DNA of 64,000 nucleotides from Mycobacterium sp. GTDB lineage: Bacteria > Actinomycetota > Actinomycetes > Mycobacteriales > Mycobacteriaceae. Location of the stretch: positions 62,001 to 126,000 of the forward strand of contig JAGQTV010000044.1 in the NCBI GenBank assembly GCA_020438845.1, read 5' to 3'. A program made the position numbers and the translations under genes. The notes beneath the pieces are model-generated. The model did no database searches. It was given only the letters and a program-made list of their open reading frames with translations, and was not told the DNA's origin. Position 1 is the first letter of the stretch; each line of letters opens with the position of its first letter. Positions 47,273-47,518 of the stretch are shown piece after piece.

Positions 47273-47518
47273 ATGGATCCCACAATCGCCGCAGGCGCCC
47301 TCATCGGCGGTGGACTTATCCTGGGAGGCGGCGCGATCGGTGCGGGAATCGGCGACGGCGTCGCCGGCAACGCCCTCATCACCGGTATCGCCCGGCAGCC
47401 GGAGGCGCAGGGACGGCTTTTCACCCCGTTCTTCATCACCGTAGGCCTGGTCGAGGCTGCCTACTTCATCAATCTCGCGTTCATGGCGTTGTTCGTGTTC
47501 GCCACGCCCACCGGGTGA
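47273..47518 (+). CDS. atpE: ATP synthase F0 subunit c (AtpE), located outside an atp operon
   Basis: This 81-residue hairpin of two transmembrane helices has helix 1 ALIGGGLILGGGAIGAGIGDGVAGNALI, polar loop ARQPEAQGRLF, and helix 2 containing the essential ion-binding Glu61 in TVGLVEAAYFINLAFMALFVF. It differs at only about six positions (such as Leu17, Gly18, Thr37, Ile39 and the last two residues) from M. tuberculosis AtpE as I remember it. It keeps the diarylquinoline-contact residues Asp28, Glu61, Ala63, Tyr64 and Ile66. RBS AAAGGAG is ideal. No other ATP synthase gene is near, which is highly unusual for subunit c. Confidence 0.95.
   Translation: MDPTIAAGALIGGGLILGGGAIGAGIGDGVAGNALITGIARQPEAQGRLFTPFFITVGLVEAAYFINLAFMALFVFATPTG

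What the first reader, a model, noticed from the sequence alone, without database searches (positions are those of the whole stretch)
47273..47518. Stand-alone ATP synthase subunit c gene (atpE) away from the atp operon
Subunit c is normally fixed inside the atpB-E-F-H-A-G-D-C operon. Here a full-length copy, nearly identical to mycobacterial AtpE as I recall it and retaining Glu61 and the bedaquiline-contact residues, follows a small 4TM protein between the prenyl synthase/7TM genes and coaA. If this is a second copy, it could form mixed c-rings, alter ring size or proton coupling, or buffer diarylquinoline action. The tight pairing with an unknown membrane protein suggests a dedicated module.
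Basis: partly seen in the sequence, partly recalled or inferred. Interest (0 to 1): 0.88.

Follow-up and report, generated by a model that had tools for sequence, protein, structure and literature searches.

The report
Second stand-alone atpE in uncultured mycobacteria
This bacterium keeps a second, intact gene for the rotor subunit of its ATP synthase far from the usual operon; related uncultured mycobacteria have kept it under strong selection, a more distant mycobacterium copied the same gene into the same spot, and it most likely supplies extra, interchangeable rotor subunits.

Summary
The genome has a full atp operon with its own atpE on another contig, plus this intact 81-aa copy at 47273-47518. 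It is not an artefact: seven assemblies of one clade carry tm7-tm4-atpE2-coaA in the same order, and six of the seven also show the operon copy. The core protein is almost invariant (dN 0-0.04, dS 0.38-1.0). The proton/diarylquinoline-site residues match canonical AtpE, so it does not look like a drug-bypass variant.

The 4TM gene is not a dedicated partner genus-wide: 65 of 71 named tm7...coaA loci have no atpE. Within a 16-genome clade, however, 7 genomes have tm7-tm4-atpE2, 9 have lost the block, and none is mixed at this locus. A more distant mycobacterium (G044) independently and recently copied a ~378-nt atpB'-atpE-'atpF segment into the same gap, in the same orientation.

Best reading: a selected, ectopic atpE paralogue that feeds the same rotor but is expressed with tm7-tm4 and lacks the atp-operon leader hairpin. 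It is a new variant of a known kind (paralogous c-subunit genes).

A separate class of orphan atpE, absent from this genome, often lies in a TetR/antibiotic-type glycosyltransferase cassette with changed drug-site residues; that may be the more surprising find.

The parts
47273..47518 (+). atpE2: stand-alone F-type ATP synthase subunit c, 81 aa
   Evidence: purifying selection
47254..47272 (+). 19-nt tm4-atpE2 spacer with Shine-Dalgarno-like AAAGGAG (about 47261-47267); the hairpin found before operon atpE is not seen here by eye
44572..45369 (+). uppS-like prenyl diphosphate synthase, upstream end of the block
   Evidence: PF01255, 231 bits; lies next to coaA in genomes that lost the block
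47546..48478 (-). coaA-like kinase, convergent neighbour; 27 nt separate its end from that of atpE2
43757..44533 (-). haemolysin-III related protein, flanking synteny marker
   Evidence: PF03006

Best explanation
atpE2 is a working, vertically inherited duplicate of atpE. It entered the gap between tm4 and coaA in the ancestor of a clade of uncultured mycobacteria and is kept by selection. Shown: it is intact, its core is almost identical to that of the operon copy, and it evolves under strong purifying selection. Inferred: AtpE2 inserts into the same nine-membered rotor rings as AtpE1, because the 72-aa core differs at 0 to 2 positions between the two copies. What differs is supply: it has its own ribosome-binding site, probably shares a transcript with tm7-tm4, and lacks the conserved atpB-atpE leader hairpin. 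It would therefore act as a second, differently regulated source of the subunit needed in nine copies per enzyme. Its small fixed differences at the N and C termini may fine-tune the ends of the helices.
For: Second copy beside a full atp operon in the window genome. Seven genomes with atpE2 at the same place; six of the seven also show atpE in an atp operon. The 21 pairwise atpE2 comparisons give dN 0-0.039 and dS 0.38-1.00. Site residues G58, L59, E61, A63, Y64 and I66 unchanged, except that in G212 both copies carry the same A63V, a residue that is A63 in 53 of the 58 rows outside the atpE2 and class B sets (rows not de-duplicated). In the five genomes compared, the two copies of a genome share codons more than copies across genomes: the true pairing is the best of 120, also after subtracting codon-usage expectation. 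This fits two copies that serve one rotor and exchange sequence. A covarying hairpin before operon atpE, 4 of 7 pairs with compensatory change in 23 typed leaders, was not seen by eye before the six atpE2 leaders printed.
Against: No expression or protein data. In G330 only atpE2 was found; the operon copy is missing from that 92% complete assembly. Co-loss of atpE2 with tm7-tm4, and two independent recruitments to the same site, hint at a function tied to tm7-tm4 rather than simple dosage. A dosage gene should survive in some lineages without tm7-tm4, and none was seen. The N and C termini differ consistently (7 atpE2 against 6 operon sequences, start codons assumed), which simple dosage does not need. 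The codon-sharing test has n = 5, and the codon-usage expectation alone also favours the true pairing.
Confidence: 0.58

Rival explanations
1. Specialised isoform: AtpE2 replaces AtpE1 in rings made under a particular condition, and its different termini change assembly, stability or coupling, as with paralogous c subunits in fungi.
For: Consistently different N terminus (MDPxxAAG against MADP/MAADP) and C terminus (P[TNSG]G against PGAS) in 7 atpE2 against 6 operon sequences; different setting and leader; known precedent in Podospora (PMC4956034, abstract read).
Against: The 72-aa core is nearly invariant between the two copies, so differences in ring size or coupling are unlikely. The atpE2-type N terminus MDPTIAAG is also that of the operon-type subunit in PDB 8j0s, so it is not special. 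Within-genome codon sharing and the shared A63V in G212 point to one common rotor.
Confidence: 0.2
2. Dedicated tm7-tm4-atpE2 membrane module: Tm7/Tm4 assemble, anchor or gate a c-ring (inside or outside the ATP synthase), so atpE was twice captured at the end of this operon.
For: Two independent captures in the same gap and orientation; 7 with all, 9 with none, 0 mixed at this locus among 16 clade members; short 19-nt spacer in the window.
Against: tm7-tm4 exists without atpE in many mycobacteria, including the sister of G044 (G375). Tm4 shows no profile similarity to AtpI (hhalign probability 1.1%; that AtpI is a c-ring assembly factor is recalled). Loss of the block by single deletions would remove atpE2 passively. 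The gap also holds other DNA in G172 and G392.
Confidence: 0.15
3. Drug or toxin buffering: a spare c subunit that protects the ATP synthase from inhibitors of the c-ring.
For: A different class of orphan atpE does lie in an antibiotic-type cassette with changed site residues in other mycobacteria.
Against: atpE2 keeps the site residues of the operon subunit in 6 of 7 genomes, and in the seventh both copies share the same change. In the window no such regulator or drug-modifying gene lies directly beside it.
Confidence: 0.04
4. Relic or assembly artefact without function.
For: Nine of 16 clade members lack it, so it is dispensable.
Against: Same place in seven assemblies; dN/dS far below 1 over seven genomes; intact frame and ribosome-binding site.
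Confidence: 0.03

Closest known systems
Canonical mycobacterial AtpE (NF004532; PDB 8j0s, 4v1f, 7jg5)
   Same: Length, c-subunit core, Glu61 and the drug-site residues; 75 of the 80 aligned residues identical to the 8j0s chain
   Different: Not in the atp operon; sits after tm7-tm4; no leader hairpin seen; shorter, distinct termini compared with the clade's own operon copy
Podospora anserina Atp9-5/Atp9-7 paralogous c-subunit genes (PMC4956034, abstract only)
   Same: Two genes for the same rotor subunit, with different expression that tunes ATP synthase
   Different: Nuclear fungal genes whose proteins differ structurally and functionally; here the cores are nearly identical and no expression data exist
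Human ATP5G1/2/3 (recalled; only a search listing seen)
   Same: Several genes giving one interchangeable mature subunit c, so that supply is regulated
   Different: Differ in mitochondrial presequences; eukaryotic
Ectopic duplications of bacterial ATP synthase genes (PMC4154653, passages read)
   Same: Single or multiple F0F1 genes duplicated outside the locus in scattered bacteria
   Different: The passages shown describe isolated, mostly species-specific cases or whole F0 sets/N-ATPases; none of them describes a clade-wide, selected stand-alone atpE or repeated capture at one site
Class B orphan atpE, often in TetR-glycosyltransferase cassettes (seen here)
   Same: Stand-alone atpE in the same genus
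   Different: Separate deep clade (100/99), 68-77% identity, changed residues 58/63/64, antibiotic-type neighbours

Membership tests
F-type ATP synthase subunit c (mycobacterial AtpE, NF004532) | Profile score above curated cut-off over full length | tested here: met
   160.1 bits against 120, residues 1-80
F-type ATP synthase subunit c (mycobacterial AtpE, NF004532) | Conserved carboxylate (Glu61), Gly-rich first helix and RQP loop (features recalled) | tested here: met
   Sequence and alignment to PDB chains
F-type ATP synthase subunit c (mycobacterial AtpE, NF004532) | Encoded in the atp operon between atpB and atpF | tested here: not met
   Lies between tm4 and coaA; no atp gene other than atpE in the 3.4-kb locus L033 searched with the atp queries. 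The operon has its own atpE
F-type ATP synthase subunit c (mycobacterial AtpE, NF004532) | Incorporated into a c9 ring of F1Fo | not testable with these tools
   Needs protein chemistry or cryo-EM
N-ATPase / alternate F1Fo c subunit (TIGR03322) | Score above cut-off | tested here: not met
   27.8 bits against 130.85
V/A-type K subunit | Score above cut-off of a K-subunit model | tested here: not met
   NF004888 23.5 against 101; NF004913 18.7 against 211. A separate K-like gene lies on C109
Class B orphan c subunit cassette | TetR regulator and antibiotic-type glycosyltransferase adjacent, residues 63/64 changed | tested here: not met
   Window neighbours are tm4 and coaA; residues A63 Y64 kept. 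Class B is a separate clade
AtpI (for tm4) | Profile similarity to AtpI | tested here: not met
   hhalign probability 1.1% between the tm4 alignment (46) and an AtpI alignment (10); no Pfam match for the window protein

The most novel reading that the evidence does not exclude
tm7, tm4 and atpE2 form a membrane module in which the unknown Tm4/Tm7 proteins assemble, tether or gate c-rings. Two separate mycobacterial lineages captured atpE at the same place at the end of this operon, and members of the older lineage lose all three genes together. This would be a new way to regulate or repurpose the ATP synthase rotor.
Probability: 0.2. Interest if true: 0.75.

Novelty: new variant of a known kind. 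Interest (0 to 1): 0.55.

Why it matters
Subunit c is needed in nine copies per mycobacterial ATP synthase and is the bedaquiline target, so how its supply is set matters. A clade with two unlinked, nearly interchangeable atpE genes, one under a different leader and setting, makes c-subunit dosage and mixed rings testable. The repeated capture of atpE next to tm7-tm4 gives a genetic lead on what these conserved but unnamed membrane proteins might touch. I found no paper on a second stand-alone atpE in mycobacteria in the searches (open-licence PMC papers only; listings seen, and of the 1, 3, 0, 6 and 114 papers matched, passages of four on mycobacterial 'second copy' or 'two copies' checked).

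Tried and rejected
Rejected: simple relocation (operon atpE present); assembly artefact (same order in other assemblies); plasmid or phage origin (no phage match; the single plasmid match is a whole atp operon on a Tsukamurella 'plasmid 10' record; tm4 has no plasmid match); drug-bypass copy (site residues unchanged); tm4 as an AtpI relative; tm4 identity by Pfam or PDB (no usable match). I first concluded that atpE2 carriers form a clade of their own (7 rows, SH-aLRT 100). Adding relatives that lost the block changed this to one clade with interleaved losses. The DNA tree of atpE alone does not resolve where atpE2 branches; one origin is not rejected (p-AU 0.538). Left out of that tree were the G044 pieces, partial copies and repeats of the same gene; of 95 rows built, 81 different ones went in. 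My notebook entry on class B gives 17 of 25 for the TetR gene; a recount gives 18.

Full report
THE OBSERVATION. The window holds an intact 81-aa atpE ORF at 47273-47518 on the + strand, with a good ribosome-binding site, 19 nt after a 130-aa membrane-protein gene (tm4) and 27 nt before the end of the convergent coaA. The protein passes the mycobacterial AtpE equivalog cut-off (160.1 against 120 bits) and is identical at 75 of 80 aligned residues to the c subunit of PDB 8j0s (counted by eye). PF00137 finds three genes in the genome: atpE within the operon atpI-B-E-F-H-A-G-D-C on C83, this copy on C21, and a V/A-type K-like gene beside a V_ATPase_I gene on C109. It is thus a second F-type c gene, not a relocated one.

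HOW COMMON SECOND COPIES ARE. Of 396 genomes of the genus searched with this protein, 386 have a match and 53 have two or more (counted by hand from its table). I sorted the extra copies by the places and identities and, where read, by their surroundings. Six genomes have a copy at the coaA locus (G000, G347, G391, G032, G212, and the separate case G044); 2 have the atp operon twice (G235, G302); 33 have a full-length, more diverged orphan ('class B', 68-77% identity; 36 copies, of which the surroundings of 25 were read and the rest sorted by identity alone); 12 have only short or weak pieces, which were not studied. G330 has the coaA-locus copy but its operon copy was not found (92% complete).

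THE LOCUS. The 4TM gene is not an atpE accessory in general. The search with it found a match somewhere in 174 of 198 genus genomes. In a scan of named genomes with tm7 (461 aa), the best 80 of 196 loci that encode a relative were kept. Of the 71 of these that hold both tm7 and coaA, 6 have atpE between them; all 6 are MAG contigs (two from one project; that the samples are aquatic is inferred from titles). Five of these contigs have the same length as contigs of G347, G212, G330, G032 and G391; the sixth is L158. With the window this gives seven assemblies with tm7-tm4-atpE2-coaA. In six of the seven an operon atpE is also present (G000, G347, G212, G391; G032; L158's genome); G330 is the exception. 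In G032 and G330 the tm4 slot holds a strongly diverged tm4 homologue: the G032 protein is 25% identical to the window's but shares residues invariant in the family; the G330 protein was judged by eye.

SELECTION. For the 72-aa core, the 21 atpE2-atpE2 pairs show dS 0.38-1.00 and dN 0-0.039. The two copies of one genome differ at 0 to 2 core positions in the five genomes compared. What is consistently different are the ends: atpE2 starts MDPxxAAG and ends P[TNSG]G in 7 of 7; the operon copies of five carriers and G383 start MADP or MAADP and end PGAS in 6 of 6 (start codons assumed). The atpE2-type start is also that of the 8j0s chain, so it is not unique to atpE2. The site residues G58, L59, E61, A63, Y64 and I66 (numbering of 8j0s; their role in diarylquinoline binding is recalled) are as in canonical AtpE. 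The exception is G212, where both copies carry V63; one search counted A63 in 53 of the 58 rows outside the atpE2 and class B sets (3 M63; 2 V63, one the G212 operon copy, the other probably a fragment in L144; rows not de-duplicated).

DO THE COPIES EVOLVE TOGETHER? In the five genomes compared, the sum of within-genome dS is the lowest of all 120 pairings. Codon identity minus the expectation from each genome's codon usage is also best in the true pairing, 1 of 120 (expectation from uppS, tm7 and coaA only, and the expectation alone also favours the true pairing). With n = 5 this is modest evidence for occasional gene conversion or shared constraint, both of which fit a common rotor.

HISTORY. 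A tree of coaA, uppS, haemolysin III and the next conserved protein (51 rows) puts the seven carriers in a clade of 16 genomes (support 100/96). In the other nine the tm7-tm4-atpE2 block is gone: uppS and coaA are separated by about 16-100 nt in eight, with junctions that mostly differ in sequence, and by a different stretch of about 860 nt in G392. Each of the nine has a single atpE match. Carriers and losers are interleaved, so one gain and several losses is the simplest history. No member has atpE2 without tm7-tm4 or the reverse at this locus; whether tm7 or tm4 lies elsewhere was not searched in most of the nine. The losers are 63-97% complete.

A SECOND, INDEPENDENT CAPTURE. G044 lies elsewhere in both trees. 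Its contigs break inside atpE because it holds two nearly identical copies: one contig pair is the operon, the other runs tm4-atpE and atpE-coaA. The copied segment is about 378 nt (255 + 199 - 76 overlap): the last 19 nt of atpB with its stop, the spacer, all of atpE and the first 34 nt of atpF, with 4 differences, the 3 within the gene being silent. Its sister G375 (100/99) has tm7-tm4-coaA without atpE between. Among the second copies sorted above, the only two captures of a single canonical-type atpE are at the same gap, co-directional with tm4. This is hard to put down to chance, although the gap also holds other DNA in some genomes and varies from 632 to 3955 nt (tm7 to coaA, 71 loci).

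EXPRESSION ANATOMY. Operon atpE has a stem-loop of the form CTGGTAG...CTACCAG just before AAGGAGG. A strict search reported a stem in 40 of 51 leaders, in two of them another stem. An alignment of 23 leaders folds to a 7-bp stem with compensatory changes at 4 pairs. Rfam matched nothing there at E up to 1 in L093. The six atpE2 leaders printed do not show it by eye. atpE2 is therefore likely expressed from a different transcript and without this element (inference); the G044 copy, by contrast, carries the operon leader with it.

MECHANISM. Shown: intact, conserved, selected second copy in a different genomic setting. Inferred: AtpE2 joins the same rings and adds to or tunes the supply of subunit c. 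The alternative that Tm7/Tm4 act on a c-ring is kept open because of the co-loss and the repeated capture. Nothing supports a drug-buffering role for this copy.

COMPARISON. Paralogous c-subunit genes that tune ATP synthase are known in Podospora (PMC4956034, abstract), and ectopic duplications of ATP synthase genes are known in scattered bacteria (PMC4154653, passages). I saw neither a stand-alone, clade-wide mycobacterial atpE2 nor a repeated capture in the listings of searches. Passages of four papers were checked: the 'two copies' or 'second copy' of PMC8302736, PMC8262987, PMC6606801 and PMC9461714 concern rrl, tRNA genes, tagged RNase genes and NDH-2. PMC8617483 passages support the c9 ring and a proton-carrying c glutamate in M. 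smegmatis.

CLASS B, NOT IN THIS GENOME. Other mycobacteria carry orphan c genes that form a separate clade (100/99). Of 25 such loci read, 18 have a TetR-family gene and 17 a glycosyltransferase (one broken) close by, 16 both; 6 have neither, and two loci (L101, L135) are near-identical. The two glycosyltransferases scanned resemble, far below cut-off, rifamycin- and macrolide-inactivating enzymes (one scanned passes PF06722). All 25 change residue 63 or 64. In another genus of the family a similar cassette occurs at L229, while the similar orphan L228 shows none in the 3.2 kb held. I read this as a candidate system against natural inhibitors of the c-ring; that is an inference.

Noticed in passing
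L099-L111, L131-L141, L146 (for example L136:7695-9859); also L229 in another genus: Orphan 'class B' atpE genes, often in a cassette with a TetR regulator and an antibiotic-type glycosyltransferase (16 of 25 loci have both, 6 neither); all 25 have changed residues at 63/64 near the essential Glu. Candidate defence against natural c-ring inhibitors.
   Followed up: partly
L093 about 9304-9380 (-) and other atpE leaders: Conserved stem-loop (CTGGTAG...CTACCAG) just before the Shine-Dalgarno of operon atpE in mycobacteria, with compensatory changes at 4 of 7 pairs in 23 leaders; no Rfam match in L093.
   Followed up: partly
L001, L094 (own genome, contig C109): A V/A-type ATPase region (K-like subunit and V_ATPase_I gene) in this mycobacterium; K-like hits of about 60 bits in 6 of 198 genus genomes.
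   Followed up: no
L126/L127 (G235) and L128/L129 (G302): The atp operon is present twice in the assembly; in G235 the two copies lie about 47 kb apart on one contig.
   Followed up: no
L116:4856-5128 and L117:696-950 (G212): Both atpE copies of this uncultured genome carry the same A63V change beside the essential Glu.
   Followed up: partly
L124:4740-5000 (G392): Operon atpE near a contig end reads as a mycobacterial first half joined to a very different second half with Asp for Glu; probably a chimeric MAG contig.
   Followed up: no
L037-L050 and L147-L226, several: tm4 is often present as two tandem, diverged copies between tm7 and coaA; the tm7-coaA gap varies from 632 to 3955 nt in the 71 named loci measured.
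   Followed up: no
L227 (NZ_LR134452.1): A Tsukamurella record labelled plasmid 10 carries an atp operon with chromosomal-type neighbours; possibly a chromosome piece labelled as a plasmid.
   Followed up: no
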